Shown piece after piece: positions 27,687 to 61,050 of a DNA stretch of 64,000 bases. The stretch spans positions 372,001-436,000 of the forward strand of contig NZ_SNAQ03000001.1 in assembly GCF_004375085.3 (NCBI RefSeq), written 5' to 3'. The position numbers and the translations under genes are program-made. Position 1 is the stretch's first letter. Each line of letters begins with the position of its first letter. The notes beneath the pieces were generated by a model. The model worked only from the letters and a program-made list of their open reading frames with translations, was not told where the DNA came from and did not search any database. Source of the DNA: Lewinella sp. W8 (lineage in GTDB: Bacteria; Bacteroidota; Bacteroidia; Chitinophagales; Saprospiraceae).

Positions 27687-28394
27687 CTACGACCCGCTGG
27701 GTGACCCCGCCCACGCCATCTCCGGATGCCAATAATTGCCGGGGTAATTACTCGGAGCACCCGCCAGACCGGCCCGCACCGGGTTGTGCAGCACTTCCCA
27801 GAAGATTTTGTTGAAGGTGCCGGGCCGCACGGCCCGCTCGAAGGCTTTGCCGGCCCAAACCCGCTGCCTTTTCCGGTGAAGTAAGTGATTAATACTTCGG
27901 GTGGTAGCTCGTTTATGTTTTTCGAGCAGGGGCAGCAAGCTCCGTCGCTCAAAGGGATCGGGGTGTGAGGCAAGCAGGTGAACGTGGTTGGGCATGACGC
28001 AGATGGCGTGTAAATGAACCTCTCCGGCCTGTTCCAGCAGTTTCCAGTGGTGCAGGAGTTGATCCCGAATGTCCGTCTCGGTCAGGTTGATCCCGGTGGG
28101 GGTGGTGTGGTCCAGCTCGGCGTCAAACCGCCGTTGGTGTAACTCTCGCAGCCTTGCCTTTTCCATGGAAAGGTAGGGGTGTTCCTCCACCCCGGGCACT
28201 TCTCCGAGTTTTCCGGTACTGATGCGTCGCCGTAGTTGGGCGAGGTCGGTTTCGTAAGCTTTCCGTAGCGCCGCTTCCCGCTCGGCGGGAAGGGAATCAT
28301 GGAGGTAATAGATGATGTGGACCGGTCCCTGGGTGAGCGGTTGGCTGCGGTGGGGCAGTTCAAGGACTGCGGGAGGTGGGGAAGGTAAACTCAT
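27687..28394 (-). CDS. RAYT-like HUH transposase, catalytic Tyr apparently lost
   Basis: From the ATG at 28394 the protein has 235 residues and belongs to the Y1/REP-associated tyrosine transposase superfamily. The metal-binding HUH motif is intact in AICVMPNHVHLLAS near residue 130, and the C-terminal NPVRAGLAG motif is present. In family members I recall, the nucleophilic tyrosine sits four residues before the Asn of NPV (as in E. coli RAYT, ...DYIYINPV). Here that position is Glu in FWEVLHNPV. The N-terminal extension (about 60 residues, ERRISTGKL-like helices) is longer than usual. It is a single gene without insertion-sequence ends, convergent with the FG-GAP gene by seven bases, and may act on REP-like palindromes found elsewhere in the window. 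Confidence 0.82.
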   Translation of the reverse strand: MSLPSPPPAVLELPHRSQPLTQGPVHIIYYLHDSLPAEREAALRKAYETDLAQLRRRISTGKLGEVPGVEEHPYLSMEKARLRELHQRRFDAELDHTTPTGINLTETDIRDQLLHHWKLLEQAGEVHLHAICVMPNHVHLLASHPDPFERRSLLPLLEKHKRATTRSINHLLHRKRQRVWAGKAFERAVRPGTFNKIFWEVLHNPVRAGLAGAPSNYPGNYWHPEMAWAGSPSGS

Positions 28395-28399
28395 CTCGC

Positions 28400-28439
28400 T
28401 ACAATTTGTGTAAAAATACGAATTATGAAACAAATTGTA
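28400..28439. promoter_or_regulatory. Inverted repeat between RAYT and murQ
   Basis: TACAATTTGT (28400-28409) and ACAAATTGTA (28430-28439) are perfect 10-base inverted copies separated by 20 bases of A+T-rich sequence. They sit in the 99-base divergent region, six bases ahead of the RAYT start codon. They could be a two-half-site operator or a hairpin in the RAYT leader. No element terminus is evident. Confidence 0.45.
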
Positions 28440-28466
28440 AAATAATATTTCTAATCCAACAAAGTT

Positions 28467-28474
28467 TACCTTGC
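28467..28474 (+). promoter_or_regulatory. Candidate minus-7 box of murQ
   Basis: TACCTTGC fits TAnnTTTG at all but two positions and ends 19 bases before the ATG at 28494. No TTG is found at the expected upstream distance. It is the best promoter candidate in this gap. Confidence 0.3.
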
Positions 28475-28493
28475 GGAGGATATCGCACATGCC

Positions 28494-29297
28494 ATGGAAA
28501 AAATCACGGAACAACCCGGGCTATACCGCCATCTGGAGCGGCAGTCAACAGCCGAATTACTGACCAACATCAACCGGGAAGACCAGAAAGTGGCCCTTGC
28601 GGTGGAGGCCTGCATTCCCGCCCTGACGGCTCTGGTGGACGAGATCGTTCCCCGGATGCAGCGAGGGGGCAGAATCTTTTACATTGGTGCGGGTACCAGC
28701 GGACGACTGGGCGTCCTGGACGCCAGTGAGTGCCCCCCGACCTTCGGCGTGCCGCCGGATTGGGTAGTCGGCTTGATTGCCGGTGGCGACCACGCCCTCC
28801 GCCATCCGGTAGAATCCGCCGAAGACGCTATGGATCAAGCCTGGCGTGACCTTTCCGAACACGACATCAACGATAAAGATACCCTCATCGGGATCGCCGC
28901 TTCGGGCACCACGCCCTACGTGGTGGGCGGCCTGCGGGATGCCCGGGCACACGGCATATTGACCGCCAGCGTTACTTGCAATCCGGGAGCGCCCGTCTCC
29001 GAACACGCAGATCACCCCATCGTGGCGGTGGTCGGCCCGGAGGTGGTCACGGGAAGTACCCGAATGAAGTCCGGCACGGCCCAGAAGCTGATCCTCAACA
29101 TGATCACCACCACCACCATGATTCGCCTGGGGAGGGTAAAGGATAACCGCATGGTCGACATGCAACTGTCCAACGCCAAACTGGTGGACCGTGGCACCAA
29201 GATGATCGTAGAGCAACTGGGGCTGGAGTACGAGGAAGCCAAGCGGCGCCTGCTGCTCGAGGGTAGCGTCCGGAAGGTTATCGAAGGGCAGCCGTAG
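28494..29297 (+). CDS. murQ: N-acetylmuramic acid 6-phosphate etherase
   Basis: This 267-residue cytoplasmic enzyme cleaves the lactyl ether of N-acetylmuramic acid 6-phosphate to give N-acetylglucosamine 6-phosphate and lactate, a step of peptidoglycan recycling. The SIS-domain sugar-phosphate site is seen as IFYIGAGTSGRLGVLDASECPPTFG near residue 60, and EsAED-type catalytic region SAEDAMDQAW near 107. Further conserved blocks are GIAASGTTPYVVGGL near 130 and GSTRMKSGTAQKLILNM near 183. The length is typical for the shorter MurQ forms lacking the C-terminal UBA-like extension. It precedes the truncated haemoglobin gene by 24 bases and may share a transcript. No MurNAc kinase or transporter is adjacent. 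Confidence 0.95.
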   Translation: MEKITEQPGLYRHLERQSTAELLTNINREDQKVALAVEACIPALTALVDEIVPRMQRGGRIFYIGAGTSGRLGVLDASECPPTFGVPPDWVVGLIAGGDHALRHPVESAEDAMDQAWRDLSEHDINDKDTLIGIAASGTTPYVVGGLRDARAHGILTASVTCNPGAPVSEHADHPIVAVVGPEVVTGSTRMKSGTAQKLILNMITTTTMIRLGRVKDNRMVDMQLSNAKLVDRGTKMIVEQLGLEYEEAKRRLLLEGSVRKVIEGQP

Positions 29298-47858: not shown

Positions 47859-47879
47859 GGTTGGGGGAGGATATAATTA

Positions 47880-47953
47880 ATGATTGAAGGACGGAAGGAG
47901 AGAGGGATTGAATTAACGAATACGTTCCTTCAATCCCTCTCTCCTTCAATCAT
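47880..47953. repeat. Long inverted repeat with 8-base bulge
   Basis: ATGATTGAAGG (47880-47890) plus AGAGAGGGATTGAA (47899-47912) is the exact reverse complement of the 25 bases 47929-47953, with ACGGAAGG bulging from the left arm. The 16-base loop contains AACG and CGTT. It lies seven bases after the porin-like gene. It may help termination or protect the 3' end; on neither strand does a T-tract follow directly. Confidence 0.6.
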
Positions 47954-47960
47954 TCTACCC

Positions 47961-48596
47961 TTAGAACCGGTAGGCGATCGAGCCGATCCAGCGTTTGGGG
48001 GCCTGATCGACGCGAATGTTGCCGCCGCCGATCATGATGTCTTCTCCGTAGCGGGAAAAGTTGCCGTCGTAGCGGACGTCCACGGTGACGGGGCCGATGT
48101 CGATGGCTCCGCCGAGGGCGTAACCGAGGTTAAAGGAATCGAAGGCCCGGTCGATACCCCCTTCGTCCATCAGGTCACTGACGCTGGAGACGTAGATGTG
48201 GCCTACGGGACCGGCCTGGAGACGCAGGAAAGCCAGTTTCCAGCTGGCAAGTAAGGGGATGTTGATGTCGTTGTACCGTTCGCTGAAGACCTGAAGGCCT
48301 TCTCCGGATTCGGGGTCATTAACGCTGAAGTCGGTCTTGGCGCTGTTAAAGGTCAGTTCCGTTTGCAGATCGAAGCGATCGGAAAGGGGGATGCGGAGCA
48401 GTGCGCCAAACTGGAAGCCGTAATCGGCATCGGCGATGGCAAAGAGGAGGTCTTCGCGGCCTTCGCGGTCCAGGCGGAATTCCTCGCCCTGGAGGCTTTC
48501 GGTGGCCAGTCCGGCCTTGAGGCCGAATTCGACCTGGGCGTACGCGCCGGCCGACAGGAGGCAGCAAACGAGCAGCGGTATGAAGCGGTTTTTCAT
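47961..48596 (-). CDS. Porin-family outer membrane protein
   Basis: This 211-residue protein has a signal peptide (MKNRFIPLLVCCLLSAGAYAQ) and a small barrel with typical start VEFGLKAGLATESL. Strands such as GFQFGALLRIPLSDRFDLQTELTFN and ALGGAIDIGPVTVDVRYDGNF follow, and it ends IGSIAYRF, a good beta-signal. It is similar to the PorT-like family of 8-stranded barrels in Bacteroidota. The ligand is unknown. It stands alone with a hairpin and a terminator behind it. Confidence 0.82.
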   Translation of the reverse strand: MKNRFIPLLVCCLLSAGAYAQVEFGLKAGLATESLQGEEFRLDREGREDLLFAIADADYGFQFGALLRIPLSDRFDLQTELTFNSAKTDFSVNDPESGEGLQVFSERYNDINIPLLASWKLAFLRLQAGPVGHIYVSSVSDLMDEGGIDRAFDSFNLGYALGGAIDIGPVTVDVRYDGNFSRYGEDIMIGGGNIRVDQAPKRWIGSIAYRF

Positions 48597-54118: not shown

Positions 54119-54141
54119 TCAGGTTCTTTCTCCTAAAAATA

Positions 54142-54281
54142 GGGTGTTCCGTGAGGTTTCATCAGCGATTCCTGCGGAATCGCGGCAGTTCAGAGGGGCA
54201 AACGGTAGCGGCAAGGCATGCCTTGCCGCTACTGGTGAATTTAAGGACTTGATGGCCAAAGGATTAATTCACGGAACAGCC
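54142..54281. mobile_element. Small inverted-repeat element with target duplication
   Basis: GGGTGTTCCGTGA (54142-54154) and TCACGGAACAGCC (54269-54281) are inverted ends with one mismatch in 13. CTCCTAAAAATA occurs immediately to the left (54130-54141) and again two bases beyond the right end (54284-54295), a perfect 12-base direct duplication; the right copy contains the stop codon of the Omp85-like gene (54287-54289). Inside are two hairpins of the REP-like type (54165-54183 and 54205-54232). It has no coding capacity, so it looks like a non-autonomous mobile element. Confidence 0.65.
54165..54232. repeat. REP-like double hairpin, copy A
   Basis: Hairpin 1 is GCGATTCC, a 3-base loop and GGAATCGC. 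After 21 bases hairpin 2 follows: GTAGCGGCAAGGC, AT, GCCTTGCCGCTAC. The copy at 60937-61005 has the same order, spacing and GTAG...CTAC ends but different stem bases that keep pairing. GTAG-headed palindromes are typical substrates of RAYT transposases. Confidence 0.65.
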
Positions 54282-54286
54282 TACTC

Positions 54287-55600
54287 CTAAAAATACTGCC
54301 CAAAACCCGCCACGAAGCCCCGCTGCCGGCCGTCGAATACGTCCCGTCCGAAATCCAGCCGGATGACGGTGTCGTTGGATTGGTGGGAAATCAAGCGGAG
54401 GCCGACCCCCACGAAGTGGCGGATATTGTCCCTCTCGATGAGGTCGCGAAAGTCTCCGCCCGGATTGCGCCAGGTGCCCAGGTCACTGAAGCCGACCAGC
54501 TGGGCCGAAAAACGTTGCTGGCGGTCCGCCCACACCAAATGGCGATATTCGAGGTTGAGGATGAGCTGGGCGGTACCGCGATCAATCCGGTTGCCGCTTC
54601 CCCGGATGTTGATCTGGCTGTCCAACACGAAGGGAGCAAAGGGACTGTCGTTGTTGGAGGACAGGCCGGTTCTTAACCTGGCGGCGAGATTTCCTCGCTG
54701 TCCCAGCAGACGGAACCACCGGAAATCGTGCCAGCCAATCAGGAAGGCGGGTTGCCCGCCAGGATTGAAGACCAATTGGCCGATGCTCTGGTGGTTGGAG
54801 CCGGAAAGCCGGGCACCGTGGTAGTCTAGCTGGTCAATCCGGTGGTGAAACCTTACCAAATACTTTCGTTGCCGGAGGCGGTCCGGGCCGAGCGGACTTT
54901 GGGTCGTTTTGAGGAAATCTTCGGTGAAGGTGCTCAGACCTACCGTCAGGCGTTGCCGTGGCCGGAAGGTGTAACTAAGGTCAAGCCCCAGGCTGAGGTT
55001 CGCGTAGCGGTAGTTTACCTGGCCCTCGGGAAAGTATAGGGGCTCAATGGCGGCGTAGCGGCGAAATTCAATTCCGTACCCCCAGCGGCTGCCGCGGTAG
55101 GCGGAATTGCGCAGCGAGAAGTAGAAATTATGCTCCCCGTCATTATTCTGGTAATTGGCGGCTAATTCCTGTCCCAGTCCGCGCCAGTGACTGTCGCGGA
55201 ATCCGAGCTGGTAGTAGAAATTGCCCTGGATGCCGCCGAGGTTGACCACGGGGAAGAGGGTTCTGCTTTCGGTGAAATCCCAGTGGACGGTGGTGTCCTT
55301 TCCGTTGGTCTCCAGCCGATAGGTGGCCCGCTGGAGGGCGGGAAGGTTCACCAGGTCTTGCCGCAGGCGCTCCAATTGCGCGGGAAGGGCCGTGCCGAAG
55401 CCAGATTGATACTGCAGGATACTATCCTGGCCTTCCCCGGCCGTCAGGCCGGGAATACGAGCGGTCAGGTATTGCACCTGCGTCCGCGCCAATCCCGAAA
55501 ATCTCATCCTGACCTGCGCCCCGAGAAAGGAGGAAGAAAAGGTCAGGAAAAACAAGACTAAGCCGAACGAAAATCTACGGAAGGGAAGGGTAGAAAACAC
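54287..55600 (-). CDS. Omp85-like outer membrane beta-barrel protein
   Basis: This 437-residue protein has a signal peptide (FGLVLFFLTFSSSFLGAQ), a short N-terminal periplasmic region resembling one POTRA repeat (about 30-115, LARTQVQYLTARIPGLTAGE, then LERLRQDLVNLPALQ), and a barrel of about 320 residues. IRGSGNRIDRGTAQLILNLEYRHL near 340 resembles the conserved RG(F/Y) lid-loop region of Omp85 proteins. The C-terminal VAGFGQYF is a plausible beta-signal. It could insert or transport proteins or lipids in the outer membrane. It may be co-transcribed with the DUF547-barrel fusion 28 bases upstream. Its stop codon lies in a 12-base element duplication. Confidence 0.75.
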   Translation of the reverse strand: MFSTLPFRRFSFGLVLFFLTFSSSFLGAQVRMRFSGLARTQVQYLTARIPGLTAGEGQDSILQYQSGFGTALPAQLERLRQDLVNLPALQRATYRLETNGKDTTVHWDFTESRTLFPVVNLGGIQGNFYYQLGFRDSHWRGLGQELAANYQNNDGEHNFYFSLRNSAYRGSRWGYGIEFRRYAAIEPLYFPEGQVNYRYANLSLGLDLSYTFRPRQRLTVGLSTFTEDFLKTTQSPLGPDRLRQRKYLVRFHHRIDQLDYHGARLSGSNHQSIGQLVFNPGGQPAFLIGWHDFRWFRLLGQRGNLAARLRTGLSSNNDSPFAPFVLDSQINIRGSGNRIDRGTAQLILNLEYRHLVWADRQQRFSAQLVGFSDLGTWRNPGGDFRDLIERDNIRHFVGVGLRLISHQSNDTVIRLDFGRDVFDGRQRGFVAGFGQYF

Positions 55601-55628
55601 GATGTGGTACTAAACGAGAAGGGCGGGT

Positions 55629-57194
55629 TTAGAGGTTGAACCTCAGGCCCAGGTTTACGGTGCCGGCGTTGCCGTCCACGCTGCTGATGAATTCATTATC
55701 GAAGGCCGTCAACAAGACTTCCAGCTCAAACTTTGGCGTAAACTGGTACTTGGCTCCACTGCCGACCTGGTAGAAGTAGTCAAAGTCTTCCTGCCAGTAA
55801 GGACTGTAGCTGGCCAGGGCGTACAGTGTGGTTTTGGGGTTGGGGAAATAGCTTACGATCCCCGTCAACGGCGTGGAGAAACGGTTGATGTGGCCCTCCA
55901 GGTCGGGGCCAATGTCTTCCAGCAGTACGTCCACCTCCGCAAATACGCTGAAGTTGTTGCCGACGGGGAAATCGTTGAAAAACTGGGTGAACCAGGTAGG
56001 TCCATCGAAGTCGATAAAGCGCTGTCCGGTCTCCGCGCCGCTCGGATCATCGGCGATGGGTAGCCATAGGGCCGACTGCACGGAAAAGTTGGGCAGCTGG
56101 GTAAAGGGGGCAATCCGCACCTTGGGGCCGAAGCCGGTTACGCCCTGGCGGAAAGCTCCGGCATCATCTGAGCTGAATACGTCGAAATTGCTGGCGCTAC
56201 CCTCTTCGTCGTAACGTACCCGCCGGTACCGCAGGTCGAAACCCACGTTTATCCGGTTGGTGAGTCCGTACAGGGCACTGGTCGTGGACGTAAAAAAGGA
56301 GGCCCGCTCTCCGGCGGCCTCCTGACTGTAAAGGTTGTTGAAAATCTTGATTTCGTAGGTGCCCTGCGGAATGGCGGCCGAGACGACGTAGCGTGCGGCG
56401 TTGTTGCCTCCTCCGGTGGGCGGTGCGCCGCCGCCGGAAACTTCGGCGTCTTCCGGGGTGGCTCCGGCCCGACCAGCGGGCACATTCAGGCTCCAGTCGT
56501 ACTCGTAATAACTCACCTTGGCGTCGGTGGCGAGGGGCTGGCTGCGGTACCGGTTGATGAAGTCGAGTACGGCAGTTTTAGCGCCGCCAAAATCCTTGGC
56601 GTACCAGTTGAAAATCTGAGAGAGCGCTACGGATTGGCCCCCGTTTTCGACCCGGATAAATTTTCCGTCGTTCAGTGCCTTGCGCGTCTGGCGGTTCAGC
56701 TGATTTTCCAGGTCCTGGGGCTGGTAGGCAAAACTGGTAATGGGCGGGCAGCCCAGCGCCCCACAGACGAGCACAAAGTGGAGGCGCGCGTCGGGGAATT
56801 GCTTCAGCAGAATATCCTTTTCCAGCTGGTTCAGGGTGACCGAACGACCGCCAACCTGCTGTTTCCTGCCGTCGAAGAACCCGTTCACGTCCAGAACGGA
56901 TTTCAGGGGGTAGTGGGCGAGGGCTTCCTTAATGACCAGTAAATTATAGGCATTGATCAGAAAGGCCTTCCGTTCGTTGCCCCCGAGAGAAGCAAGATCA
57001 ACTTCGGCAATCTCTTTGATCAGGGGCTGAAGGGCACCGGAGGCTTTCAGGCTGGCGTAGTCGACCCGTCCGTGGTTGACGTAGCGCATTAGGAGGTCAT
57101 CCGTGCTTTCAAAGAATGCCGCCGTTGAGGTACGGGCACTCAGGGCGGAAACGCTCAGCAGCAGGAGTGCGAAGAAGGTGAATGGCTTAAACAT
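55629..57194 (-). CDS. DUF547-beta-barrel fusion protein
   Basis: This 521-residue protein has a signal peptide (MFKPFTFFALLLLSVSALSA). Residues about 25-230 form a DUF547 domain with YVNHGRVDYASL, NERKAFLINAYNLLVIK near 75 and the conserved ARLHFVLVCGALGCPPIT near 137. A Gly/Pro-rich linker (SGGGAPPTGGGNN near 255) leads to an outer membrane barrel-like region (about 275-521) with LTNRINVGFDLRYRRVR and the C-terminal GTVNLGLRFNL. The barrel part resembles transporters or porins with an amphipathic pattern. DUF547 alone is widespread and uncharacterised; the fused barrel suggests that the DUF547 domain acts in the periplasm, attached to the outer membrane. The Omp85-like gene follows by 28 bases. 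Confidence 0.78.
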   Translation of the reverse strand: MFKPFTFFALLLLSVSALSARTSTAAFFESTDDLLMRYVNHGRVDYASLKASGALQPLIKEIAEVDLASLGGNERKAFLINAYNLLVIKEALAHYPLKSVLDVNGFFDGRKQQVGGRSVTLNQLEKDILLKQFPDARLHFVLVCGALGCPPITSFAYQPQDLENQLNRQTRKALNDGKFIRVENGGQSVALSQIFNWYAKDFGGAKTAVLDFINRYRSQPLATDAKVSYYEYDWSLNVPAGRAGATPEDAEVSGGGAPPTGGGNNAARYVVSAAIPQGTYEIKIFNNLYSQEAAGERASFFTSTTSALYGLTNRINVGFDLRYRRVRYDEEGSASNFDVFSSDDAGAFRQGVTGFGPKVRIAPFTQLPNFSVQSALWLPIADDPSGAETGQRFIDFDGPTWFTQFFNDFPVGNNFSVFAEVDVLLEDIGPDLEGHINRFSTPLTGIVSYFPNPKTTLYALASYSPYWQEDFDYFYQVGSGAKYQFTPKFELEVLLTAFDNEFISSVDGNAGTVNLGLRFNL

Positions 57195-57343
57195 GATAAA
57201 ATTTTTGTGATGTGGTTATTGATCCTTACACCACAAAATTGCCGGAGGCTGCGTGCGGGTGACTTAAAGAATCTTCCCGGAGGCTGACCGATATTTCCCG
57301 AATGGGGCTGCTTCGGGTTGAATCCGTCGGGGTACGGGTACCC

Positions 57344-57382
57344 GAAAAACAAGAGCGCCACCCGGTAATCCGGATGGCGCTC
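57344..57382 (-). terminator. Terminator of the subtilisin gene
   Basis: On the minus strand GAGCGCCATCCGG pairs with CCGGGTGGCGCTC (57382-57353), with one G-U pair and an ATTA loop, followed by TTGTTTTTC. It lies 29 bases after the stop of the subtilisin gene and separates it from the DUF547 fusion gene. Confidence 0.75.
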
Positions 57383-57410
57383 GGTGGCTTCTGACGTATG
57401 AATTTGTGGG

Positions 57411-58934
57411 CTACTGAACCGCCTGGTTGGCGTCCACGATGCCCCAGCCGAAGCTTCCGTTACGGCTGGGATAGAAGGAAGCGGCCTGCTTCATGCGGTT
57501 GAGGACCTGACTGCGACTCTGGCTCGGGTTGGTGGCCCAGACCAGGGCGGCAATGCCGGCCGTGGTGGCCGTGGCGGCGCTGGACCCGCCGACGTATCCC
57601 GGGGTGTTATTGTAGCGGGACAGCGTCAGGCTGGTGCGGTCGGTATTGCTGCGGCGCTGCATGACGGCCACGAAGTCTACCTTGCTGCCGTCGTGGCAGG
57701 TATTGCACCGCTGCATGGGGCTACCGTCCCGGATGCCCGTCACGGCGGTCGTTTCGTTCATGCTGGCGGGGAAGATCACGCCCACCCAGCTGGTCCAGGT
57801 GAGGGAAGTTCCGGCGGCGGCCACCATCAGTTTGCCGCGGTTGTAGGCGTAGTAAACACCATCCTTAACCGTACCGCTGCTGAACACGTCTCCGATGGAC
57901 ATGCTGATTACCTTAACGTCCGAGCGGTTGCCGGCACCAATCAGGGCGTTCTTCACCCCTTTCTTTTCCTTGCTGCCGTTAATGACCACGTCGCTCGTGG
58001 CCCGGTAGCTGATCAGGTTGGCCTTGTAGGCTACACCAACCGTAGCTCCGCCGGAAGTAAGGGGCGCCGCGGCCAGACCGGCCATCTGGGTGCCGTGTCC
58101 ACAACGATCGTTGGGGCCGTCCGTGCGGCTGCTCCACCAGCTGGGCTCGTAAGTGCCGTACTTCTGCACGAAACGTCCGGTGCTGGAACCGCTGGAGAAC
58201 GAGCTGCCCAGTTTGCTTTGTTCGGGGTAGACACCGGTGTCGATAACGCAGATGGTGATGTTGTCGCCCTGGCTGCGGGTCCAGGCCTGCTGGATGTTCA
58301 TGTAGCTGTAGTTCCAGGGCACCTTGGCACCGTAGGAAGTCGTGGTGAAATCTCCGGAATTGACGTTGCTACTGGGGGCGCCGCCACAGCCGGAGTCAGA
58401 CCGCAAATCGATTTCCGCGGCGTCGTAGTTGGTGGGTTCCAGGTAGCGGACCTCGGGCCGGTCACGGAATTCCGTAAGAACGTCTTTGTGGAGGATTCTG
58501 ATGTCCAGAATGGGGAGCACACCATCTTCCTCGTAGACGAAAAGTTCTTCTTCGGTGATCGGATTGCCGGTGAGGCGCTCGGTGGCTTCCAGCAGGTCAC
58601 TGACCAGCTCGTCACGGGTCACTTTCCATTCCCCTTCGTTTACGTTGATCTCGTGGATCGTTTCCTTGAGATTTTCGTAGCCCGCGGGCTGGTAGCCCAG
58701 TGCCGCGTGGTTTTCACTGAGTTCCAGCGCGGACCAGACGACGTTGACGTCCGCATCGTTCCAGTCGAATACCTCGTTGGTGCTGAAGAGGTGTTCCTCC
58801 ACGATGGCGTTGATTTCTGCTTTGGTGAGTGAGACCGGAGCTTCGGTTTCGGGCGTAGCATTGGTGGTGAGGACTTCATCCTGGCAGGAGAATACGGTGA
58901 ACGCCAGGACGCAGATAATGAGAATTCTTTGCAT
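57411..58934 (-). CDS. S8 family subtilisin-like serine protease, lipoprotein
   Basis: This 507-residue protein has a lipoprotein signal (LIICVLAFTVFSCQDE) and a propeptide-like region of about 150 residues. The catalytic triad is visible: Asp in ITICVIDTGVYPEQ near 227, His in DRCGHGTQMAGLAAAP near 278, and Ser in GYVGGSSAATATTAGIAALVWA near 453. The oxyanion Asn region is near LMVAAAGTSLTWTS. It is a surface or periplasmic peptidase, probably digesting proteins for nutrition or processing. CSC-like CNTCHDGS near 405 is a feature of this subgroup. It has its own terminator and no T9SS domain. Confidence 0.93.
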   Translation of the reverse strand: MQRILIICVLAFTVFSCQDEVLTTNATPETEAPVSLTKAEINAIVEEHLFSTNEVFDWNDADVNVVWSALELSENHAALGYQPAGYENLKETIHEINVNEGEWKVTRDELVSDLLEATERLTGNPITEEELFVYEEDGVLPILDIRILHKDVLTEFRDRPEVRYLEPTNYDAAEIDLRSDSGCGGAPSSNVNSGDFTTTSYGAKVPWNYSYMNIQQAWTRSQGDNITICVIDTGVYPEQSKLGSSFSSGSSTGRFVQKYGTYEPSWWSSRTDGPNDRCGHGTQMAGLAAAPLTSGGATVGVAYKANLISYRATSDVVINGSKEKKGVKNALIGAGNRSDVKVISMSIGDVFSSGTVKDGVYYAYNRGKLMVAAAGTSLTWTSWVGVIFPASMNETTAVTGIRDGSPMQRCNTCHDGSKVDFVAVMQRRSNTDRTSLTLSRYNNTPGYVGGSSAATATTAGIAALVWATNPSQSRSQVLNRMKQAASFYPSRNGSFGWGIVDANQAVQ

Positions 58935-59367
58935 GATAAGTTAAATGGCTTGAGATGATGCTGAAGACCACCAGGTTGCTTGGAGAATTACGGTGTTTAG
59001 GGCGACGGCGCGCAGGTGCAGTGAAAATCCCGTACTTAGCCGGGTGTCAGGTAACACCGAGGTGGCCGCGATCAGGTAATCCCGTAACTACGTCAGCAAT
59101 GTGATATGCTTTCCAAGAACCCCGATCCCGGATAGTGGTGTTTGGGATCGTGTGGTGTTTTCAGAATATTATTAAGTGCGTGGTTTTTAAGTAAAAGGTT
59201 ATGTGGTGAAGGTAGGCAATAGCGGAATTATAGCGAAATTTCGCTTGTGTTAAATTATCTATTGGTAATCGTACTATATTTAAGGCGTGTTATCATCCCA
59301 GCGGAAGGAGCGGGCCCGGTAATGGCCGTGCCCGGTTGACTTCCATATTTTCAGAAAGCAACATCCC
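58935..59367. other. Intergenic region subtilisin / OmpA gene
   Basis: These 433 bases separate divergent genes. They contain a dispersed repeat copy (58996-59020), an imperfect pair CGATCCC/GGGATCG near 59127-59155, an A+T-rich tract with the 14-base palindrome AGCGAAATTTCGCT (59232-59245), and no coding frame. A TATATTTA box near 59274 may be the OmpA gene promoter. Confidence 0.5.
58996..59020 (+). repeat. Dispersed intergenic repeat, copy 6
   Basis: TTTAGGGCGACGG followed by CGCGCAGGTGCA is nearly the same as 41325-41349 and differs by one base in 21 from the copy inside the M15 peptidase gene (15700-15720). It lies about 60 bases upstream of the subtilisin start. Confidence 0.5.
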
Positions 59368-60906
59368 ATGATACGTGTACTTCTCAGCGGCCTATTGCTG
59401 CTGTGCGCTGCCTGGCTCCCAGGGCAGCTTAATCGACCTGATCACTACAATGCACTTTCCGCCCGGGTCCTGGCGGTTGACCATAACCTGCCCAACGAGA
59501 CCTTTGACGGACTTTCCACCACCTTCGCCCTGGAGCTGGGGTACCGCCGACAACTGGGTAAAATACTTGCCCTGAAGGTGCCGCTGAAGATTGGGGTAAT
59601 TGACGTGGGAGAACTGGAAAACCCCACCATCGTTGGCATTGATTTGCTGGCGCAGATTTACCCACTGGGGACCAACGGGGGGGTAAGCCCCTTCCTCCAC
59701 GGTGGATACGGCGTCGTTAGTGAGGGATTTGAAGCGGGAAATGCCCAGATTCCCCTCGGCGCCGGCTTTAATTTCAATCTGGGGGGTAATTCCTGGTTCA
59801 ACGTGCAGGGAGAATACCGGATGTCCAATCAGGAATTACGGGACAACGTCATGGTTGGCCTGGGGTACGTATACCGACTCACCAAGCTGGATACCGACGG
59901 CGATGGCATCCTTAACCGGGATGACCTTTGCCCGGATATGCCCGGCCCCGCCGGGGCCCAGGGCTGCCCCGATACCGACCAGGACGGCATTACCGACGCC
60001 GACGATCAGTGCCCCACCCAGGCGGGGCCGGCGAGCCTCAATGGTTGTCCGGACACCGACGGGGATGGCTTAACGGACGCGGAAGATGCCTGTCCCGAGG
60101 CGGCCGGGCCGGCCCTGACCAAAGGTTGCCCGGACCGCGACGGAGACGGGGTGCCCGACGCTGGGGATGCCTGTCCGGACAAACCCGGCCCGGCCAACTT
60201 CTCCGGTTGCCCGGACACGGACGGTGACGGGACGGCGGACCACCTGGATGAATGCCGGAGTACTCCGGGGCCGGCGGACCACGCCGGCTGCCCCGATACC
60301 GACGGAGACGGGAAATACGATAACGTAGACAATTGCCCGGAGCAGGCGGCCAGTACGCCGGATGGCTGTCCGGTGCCCGACCGTGACGGTGACGGAGTGC
60401 CCGATGAGGTGGATGCCTGCCCGGGGCAGGCCGGGCCCGTTGGGGGCTGTCCGGACACGGACGGTGACGGCATTGCCGACCAGAATGATCCCTGTCCTAC
60501 CCAGGCCGGAGCACCCAACGGTGACGGTTGCCCGGAGATTGAGCAGGAGGTACAGGAGCGATTGGAATACGCCGCCCGCGCCGTGGAGTTTGAGTCCGGT
60601 TCAGCCAGACTCAAGGAAAAAAGCTACGTCATCCTCTCGGAGATTGCCCTCATTATGGGGCGGTACCCGGACTATAACCTCGTCATCTCCGGGCACACCG
60701 ATGATCGGGGCGAGCAGTTGACTAACCTGAACCTGAGTCGCCGACGGGCCCTGGCCTGCGAGGAGTTTTTGCTGGCTACGGGCATCAGGCCCCGGCGCAT
60801 CAGTTCGGCCGGCTTCGGGGAAAGTCAGCCCAAGGCCAGCAATGATACCGCCGAGGGGCGGCGGATGAACCGCCGCGTGGAGTTCGCCCTGGTGCCGGGG
60901 AATTAG
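59368..60906 (+). CDS. OmpA family protein with eight thrombospondin type 3 repeats
   Basis: This 512-residue protein has a signal peptide (IRVLLSGLLLLCAAWLPGQ), an N-terminal barrel (about 20-168), eight TSP3 calcium-binding repeats (residues about 171-390), and a C-terminal OmpA peptidoglycan-binding domain. The repeat unit is about 27 residues, of the form D-T-D-G-D-G-x-x-D-x-x-D-x-C-P followed by 7-9 residues and GCP. The OmpA part has AARAVEFESGSARLK near 398, NLVISGHTDDRGEQLTNLNLSRRRA near 430 and GFGESQPKASNDTAEGRRMNRRVEF near 473. It links the outer membrane to the wall. The DNA is a tandem array with an 81-base unit. It is followed by a REP-like double hairpin. Confidence 0.92.
   Translation: MIRVLLSGLLLLCAAWLPGQLNRPDHYNALSARVLAVDHNLPNETFDGLSTTFALELGYRRQLGKILALKVPLKIGVIDVGELENPTIVGIDLLAQIYPLGTNGGVSPFLHGGYGVVSEGFEAGNAQIPLGAGFNFNLGGNSWFNVQGEYRMSNQELRDNVMVGLGYVYRLTKLDTDGDGILNRDDLCPDMPGPAGAQGCPDTDQDGITDADDQCPTQAGPASLNGCPDTDGDGLTDAEDACPEAAGPALTKGCPDRDGDGVPDAGDACPDKPGPANFSGCPDTDGDGTADHLDECRSTPGPADHAGCPDTDGDGKYDNVDNCPEQAASTPDGCPVPDRDGDGVPDEVDACPGQAGPVGGCPDTDGDGIADQNDPCPTQAGAPNGDGCPEIEQEVQERLEYAARAVEFESGSARLKEKSYVILSEIALIMGRYPDYNLVISGHTDDRGEQLTNLNLSRRRALACEEFLLATGIRPRRISSAGFGESQPKASNDTAEGRRMNRRVEFALVPGN
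59887..60534 (+). repeat. Intragenic 81-base tandem repeat (TSP3 coding)
   Basis: The eight TSP3 repeats of the OmpA protein are encoded by a tandem array with a unit of about 81 bases; repeats 6 and 7 are shorter. Copies differ mostly in the seven to nine residues between the CP and GCP motifs. The array could change copy number by recombination. Confidence 0.75.
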
Positions 60907-60936
60907 TGCCAGGGGGTATTAAGTAATTTGTATAGC

Positions 60937-61005
60937 GCGATTCCCGGGGAATCGCAGCCCGGTAGAAAGACGCTCAGTAGGTGCGGGGCATGCCCCGCAC
61001 CTACT
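60937..61005. repeat. REP-like double hairpin, copy B
   Basis: Hairpin 1 is GCGATTCCC, a G loop and GGGAATCGC (60937-60955). After 20 bases hairpin 2 follows: AGTAGGTGCGGGGC, AT, GCCCCGCACCTACT (60976-61005). Order, spacing and the GTAG...GGC-AT-GCC...CTAC frame match copy A at 54165-54232, while stem bases between differ but remain complementary. It lies between the convergent OmpA and purE genes and may also act as a terminator. Confidence 0.7.
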
Positions 61006-61050
61006 GATCTTGTTGCGGGGCCTTGAATGAAAAATCGTCAGTCTTTAACG

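What the first reader, a model, noticed from the sequence alone, without database searches (positions are those of the whole stretch)
54165..61005. Two REP-like double hairpins with covarying stems
At 54165-54232 and 60937-61005 the same architecture occurs: a GCGATTCC/GGAATCGC hairpin, a 20-21-base spacer, and a longer palindrome with GTAG and CTAC ends and a GGC-AT-GCC centre. The stem bases between differ completely (CGGCAAGG versus GTGCGGGG) yet stay perfectly complementary. That is compensatory change, which implies selection or a mechanism acting on the structure. GTAG-headed palindromes are the hallmark of REP sequences mobilised by RAYTs, and a RAYT-like gene is at 27687-28394.
Basis: partly seen in the sequence, partly recalled or inferred. 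Interest (0 to 1): 0.72.

Follow-up and report, generated by a model that had tools for sequence, protein, structure and literature searches.

The report
REP-like hairpin pair; one copy in MITE
The two hairpin pairs are real members of a family of about 70 copies in this Bacteroidota genome: one rides inside a 144-bp miniature transposon with its own 10-bp target duplication, the other is a free-standing REP-like unit, and the palindrome in both kinds is the landing site of an RNA-guided IS110-type insertion sequence.

Summary
The genome holds about 70 such sites; none of 69 examined lies inside a gene. Stem changes are mostly two-sided while the spacer drifts freely.

The two copies are different things. 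Copy 1 is the core of a 144-bp MITE (54140-54283): 15-bp terminal inverted repeats and a perfect 10-bp target duplication. 29 copies show such duplications, so a DDE-type transposase spread it, not a RAYT. Copy 2 is one of about 20 solo units whose conservation stops at the two hairpins.

The palindrome belongs to the published "double-foot REP" class of RAYT subclass 2.4. In other Bacteroidota I find it inside or beside RAYT genes. In this genome it lies near none of the seven Y1 genes. The RAYT-like gene at 27687 has Glu at the catalytic Tyr position and no dispersed repeats in its flanks; three other RAYT-like genes have their own.

Of 20 IS110-type end matches, 17 sit at the exact centre of such a palindrome.

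Verdict: RAYT ancestry partly supported; wrong for copy 1 and the named gene.

The parts
54130..54139 (.). left 10-bp target site duplication CTCCTAAAAA
   Evidence: identical to 54284-54293
54140..54155 (+). left terminal inverted repeat of the MITE, TAGGGTGTTCCGTGAG (15-bp core TAGGSTGTTCCGTGA)
54165..54183 (+). hairpin 1, GCGATTCC TGC GGAATCGC
54184..54204 (+). 21-nt spacer
54205..54232 (.). 28-bp palindrome GTAGCGGCAAGGCATGCCTTGCCGCTAC (double-foot REP type; IS110 target type)
54268..54283 (-). right terminal inverted repeat of the MITE, TTCACGGAACAGCCTA
54284..54293 (.). right 10-bp target site duplication CTCCTAAAAA
60937..60955 (+). hairpin 1 of the solo copy, GCGATTCC CGG GGAATCGC
60956..60976 (+). 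21-nt spacer of the solo copy
60977..61004 (.). 28-bp palindrome GTAGGTGCGGGGCATGCCCCGCACCTAC; arms extend to 60974-61007
27687..28514 (-).

Best explanation
The unit is a 68-bp pair of hairpins (GCGATTCC hairpin, rigid 21-23-nt spacer, 28-bp GTAG...CTAC palindrome) of the REP kind. Solo copies such as 60937-61004 most likely spread as single-stranded hairpin DNA by a RAYT (TnpA_REP) of the double-foot kind that is no longer identifiable in this genome (inferred). One lineage of the pair became the interior of a TIR-bearing miniature transposon and was amplified to about 45 copies by a trans-acting DDE-type transposase that makes 10-bp duplications at CTAG-centred sites; 54140-54283 is such a copy (TIRs and duplications shown; transposase not found). 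The palindromes are also the preferred insertion sites of an IS110-type RNA-guided element, which enters exactly at their centre (shown). Stem pairing is retained either because mobility or another function needs the hairpin or because the arms correct each other as a quasi-palindrome; the data do not separate these.
For: MITE: left and right flank identity peaks only at 10 nt (0.60 against 0.22-0.31 at other lengths; 29 copies with at least 8/10 identical, against 0.35% of mismatched pairs); 47+56 TIR matches against 8+2 in the control; congeners G002 and G010 have the same architecture with a third hairpin, and other congener MITEs share the TIR and the 10-bp duplication with different hairpin cargo. 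Solo units: column conservation is confined to the hairpins and spacer, with flanks near 0 bits; palindrome centre offset 34-36 nt in 15 of 16; no duplication at the unit's edges. REP kind: 28-bp GTAG-palindrome-CTAC repeats with variable stems in 40 of 296 genomes of the phylum, with few matches to the reversed-pattern control, found in or beside RAYT genes in L231, L237, L255, as published for subclass 2.4 (PMC6006769). IS110: NF033542, 230 bits against a cutoff of 140; 17 of 20 end matches at palindrome centres. Intergenic: 0 of 69 inside genes.
Against: No RAYT with this repeat beside it was found in the genome or in the two congeners that carry the repeat, so RAYT spread of the solo units is by analogy only. 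No autonomous copy with the MITE's TIRs was found, so the DDE transposase is inferred from TIR plus duplication. Many loci were fetched with an exact match to hairpin 1, so conservation of that hairpin is partly by selection of the sample. The phylum sample includes genomes with palindromes and no Y1 gene found (G338, G310).
Confidence: 0.72

Rival explanations
1. One reading: both copies are REPs moved by the RAYT-like gene at 27687-28394.
For: GTAG-headed palindromes; a Y1_Tnp gene in the same window; the repeat class is RAYT-linked in other genomes.
Against: Copy 1 has TIRs and a 10-bp duplication; the gene lacks the catalytic Tyr, has no dispersed repeats around it, and no GTAG palindrome within about 1.5 kb.
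Confidence: 0.05
2. All copies are MITEs of one family; solo units are old copies whose TIRs have eroded while the hairpins were kept by arm-to-arm correction or by selection.
For: The spacing and hairpin 1 are the same in MITE and solo copies; solo copies are more diverged; several of the congener hits examined carry TIRs and 143-147-bp spacing.
Against: No conservation outside the hairpins in 20 solo copies (about 0.05 bits upstream), although the spacer between the hairpins keeps several columns at 0.7-1.3 bits; no residual target duplication.
Confidence: 0.2
3. The hairpins are kept for a job in RNA: bidirectional transcription terminators or mRNA 3' stabilisers between convergent genes, and mobility is past history.
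For: Both window copies lie between convergent genes; solo units are convergent in 11 of 22 against 42 of 179 gaps (Fisher p 0.018); none inside genes; copy 2 scores as terminator-like.
Against: MITE copies show little orientation bias (13 of 45 with known context); no T-run follows the palindrome of copy 1, and terminator-like sites in the region do not exceed shuffles (9 against 9.8); hairpin 1 plus fixed spacer is not needed for a terminator.
Confidence: 0.15

Closest known systems
Double-foot REP sequences of TnpA_REP subclass 2.4 (Bertels RAYT group 4), Quentin et al. 2018 (PMC6006769)
   Same: Palindrome with GTAG at one end and its complement CTAC at the other; subclass abundant in Bacteroidetes; inserted in and beside RAYT genes in other genomes (L231, L237, L255).
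   Different: Here the palindrome is coupled to a second, conserved hairpin at fixed spacing and has no RAYT beside it; most copies ride in a TIR-bearing MITE.
Bacterial MITEs (e.g. RUP, NEMIS, Nezha; listed in PMC3733652)
   Same: 144 bp, no coding capacity, 15-bp TIRs, target duplication, dozens of copies.
   Different: The interior is a REP-type double hairpin, and congener MITEs with the same TIRs carry other hairpins; the parent transposase is unknown.
IS110/IS1111-type insertion into REPs (IS621, ISPpu10; PMC1525189, PMC11208160, PMC11187229)
   Same: DEDD transposase of the IS110 family; insertion at one exact point of a REP-type palindrome.
   Different: Most copies are about 450-bp non-autonomous elements that themselves contain hairpins of another RAYT-linked repeat; the target is the centre of a palindrome that often lies inside a MITE.
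REPINs / BIMEs
   Same: Two hairpins at fixed spacing forming one dispersed intergenic unit.
   Different: The two hairpins are different sequences, not two inverted REPs of one type.

Membership tests
RAYT-associated REP (GTAG class) | GTAG tetranucleotide at the foot of a 20-40-bp palindrome, many intergenic copies | tested here: met
   28-bp palindrome, about 70 sites, 0 of 69 inside genes
RAYT-associated REP (GTAG class) | GTAG unpaired and present at one end only (canonical REP) | tested here: not met
   GTAG pairs with CTAC at the other end in both copies; it fits the published double-foot subtype instead
RAYT-associated REP (GTAG class) | RAYT gene flanked by the repeat in the same genome | tested here: not met
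   7 Y1_Tnp genes in the genome, none with a GTAG palindrome within about 1.5 kb; met in other genomes (L231, L237, L255)
MITE | terminal inverted repeats | tested here: met
   TAGGSTGTTCCGTGA at both ends of 54140-54283 and dozens of copies
MITE | target site duplication of fixed length | tested here: met
   10 bp, 29 copies with at least 8/10 identical; applies to copy 1, not to the solo unit at 60937
MITE | autonomous parent with the same ends | tested here: inconclusive
   none found in the genome or in congeners by TIR search or near PF01609 transposases
REPIN | two copies of one REP in inverted orientation | tested here: not met
   hairpin 1 and the palindrome are different sequences
Intrinsic terminator | GC-rich hairpin followed by a T-run | tested here: inconclusive
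   copy 2 passes a loose scan, copy 1 does not; the count equals shuffles
IS110 insertion target | insertions at one exact point, shared core duplicated | tested here: met
   17 of 20 end matches at the palindrome centre; junctions consistent with an AT core

The most novel reading that the evidence does not exclude
One hairpin unit has used three unrelated mobility chemistries: single-stranded RAYT transposition as a solo unit, DDE transposition as MITE cargo, and service as the landing pad of an RNA-guided IS110 element, whose small non-autonomous derivatives carry the hairpins of a second RAYT system, so that REP families travel nested inside one another. If so, REP copy number in this genus is set by hitch-hiking rather than by RAYT dose.
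Probability: 0.4. Interest if true: 0.6.

Novelty: new variant of a known kind. Interest (0 to 1): 0.42.

Why it matters
REPs are usually thought to spread through their RAYT. Here most copies of a REP-type hairpin pair were spread by a quite different transposon, which would mislead any count-based link between REPs and RAYTs. The family also gives a natural series of near-perfect palindromes, with spacers as a yardstick and IS110 insertions, in which the causes of palindrome upkeep (selection against arm-to-arm correction) and target choice by small IS110 elements can be tested.

Tried and rejected
Rfam: no family in the window. Hairpins as chance: rejected. RAYT at 27687 as mover: rejected. 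Integron attC-like sites and CRISPR repeats: considered from the sequence only, no matching features seen, not tested. The 450-bp inserts as seekRNA/bridge RNA carriers: strongly structured (z -3.9), but no run of more than 6 nt matching the target was found in them, so left open. Search for the MITE's parent among PF01609 transposases of three genomes and by TIR in 21 genomes of the genus gave none. The search for related loci with the RAYT-like protein gave only distant relatives (26-42% identity in the best segment).

Full report
What is there. At 54165-54232 and 60937-61004 the window has the same anatomy: an 8-bp hairpin GCGATTCC-NNN-GGAATCGC, a 21-nt spacer and a 28-bp palindrome starting GTAG and ending CTAC with CATG at its centre. 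The two palindromes differ at 4 of 14 arm positions and all four are compensated; the spacers are 8/21 identical. Both fold far better than shuffles as single strands.

How many. The hairpin-1 pattern occurs 59 times in the 6.18-Mb genome and never in the reversed control. A covariance model built from 25 double hairpins finds about 70 distinct sites. The sequences for that model were chosen for having a palindrome, so its pairing percentages are biased; the covariation was therefore recounted on MITE copies recognised by their end and hairpin 1. There the spacer differs from consensus at 12.5% of sites, and palindrome changes are 48 two-sided and paired against 12 one-sided, where drift at the spacer rate would give about 113 one-sided. 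These are counts of copies, not of events: a single old split into CATG- and AATT-centred subfamilies contributes many. Within the AATT subfamily alone it is 9 two-sided paired against 12 one-sided (expected 2 and 61). Pairing is thus kept, by selection or by arm-to-arm correction.

Two kinds of copy. About 45 copies, 54140-54283 among them, lie in a 144-bp element with 15-bp inverted ends TAGGSTGTTCCGTGA. Flank identity peaks sharply at exactly 10 nt (0.60 against 0.22-0.31), 29 copies match at 8 or more of 10 positions, and the duplicated site prefers a CTAG centre. The window copy has CTCCTAAAAA on both sides. By established knowledge of transposons, inverted ends plus a fixed-length duplication mean a MITE moved by a DDE-type transposase. 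Two congeners have the same element with a third hairpin, and other congener MITEs share the ends and the 10-bp duplication but carry other hairpins. About 20 copies, 60937-61004 among them, have no such ends: in an alignment of 20, information outside the hairpins is near zero, the palindrome centre sits 34-36 nt after hairpin 1 in 15 of 16 measured, and there is no duplication at the edges.

Setting. By a home-made gene caller trained on the window, none of 69 copies is inside a gene; solo units lie between convergent genes in 11 of 22 cases against 42 of 179 gaps (p 0.018), MITE copies in 13 of 45 with known context. Both window copies lie between convergent genes.

Kinship of the palindrome. 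A pattern for GTAG...GGCATGCC...CTAC, free in arm length, hits 40 of 296 genomes of the phylum, against a handful for the reversed control; most of the listed hits are 28-bp palindromes, perfect or nearly so, with many different stems. In G275 (L231) three flank and interrupt a RAYT gene, in G106 (L237) one lies inside a RAYT gene, and in G084 (L255) the flanking sequence reads as a RAYT-type MPNHIHG motif followed by the palindrome. This is what Quentin et al. describe for TnpA_REP subclass 2.4: double-foot REPs, and REPs inserted in frame in the tnpA_REP gene (PMC6006769).

RAYTs of this genome. Seven Y1_Tnp genes are found. None has a GTAG palindrome within about 1.5 kb. L051 lies inside an array of another double hairpin (GGTTTCC and GGTCGCC types); the genome has 32 copies of the GTCGCC hairpin. 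L052 and L054 also have their own dispersed repeats nearby. The window's gene, 27687-28514, has none, and Glu stands where its paralogs have Tyr in the Y-x-x-N-P motif. It is therefore an unlikely mover of anything, on sequence alone.

IS110. An IS110-family transposase gene (NF033542) lies in an element inserted in a palindrome (L203), and 20 matches to one end of this element type include 17 at the exact centre of a GTAG palindrome, most of them about 450 bp long and non-autonomous. Junctions fit a duplicated AT core. IS110 insertion in REPs is known (PMC1525189, PMC11187229).

Reading. Shown: a covarying two-hairpin family, its carriage in a MITE with 10-bp duplications, solo units with sharp edges, and use of the palindrome as an IS110 target. 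Inferred: that solo units were spread by a RAYT of the double-foot kind now absent or unrecognised; that a DDE transposase, not found, moves the MITE.

Noticed in passing
L203:2510-3583 (G000:C11:562500-568500) and loci L261-L278: IS110-family element and about 450-bp non-autonomous relatives with ends TGTGGG...CCCACA; 17 of 20 end matches lie at the centre of GTAG palindromes.
   Followed up: partly
L051 (G000:C1:167472-170711): A RAYT-like gene with catalytic Tyr present inside an array of GGTTTCC/GGTCGCC double hairpins; the same hairpins occur inside the 450-bp IS110-type elements.
   Followed up: partly
window 27687-28514: RAYT-like gene with Glu at the catalytic Tyr position; probably inactive.
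   Followed up: partly
L292, L315, L320 (G002), L319 (G010): MITEs of 165-208 bp with the same TAGGGTGTTCCGTC ends and, in L292, L315 and L319, 10-bp duplications, but other hairpin cargo.
   Followed up: partly
window 47878-47963: 41-nt inverted repeat with 80% complementary arms, the longest in the window; not examined.
   Followed up: no
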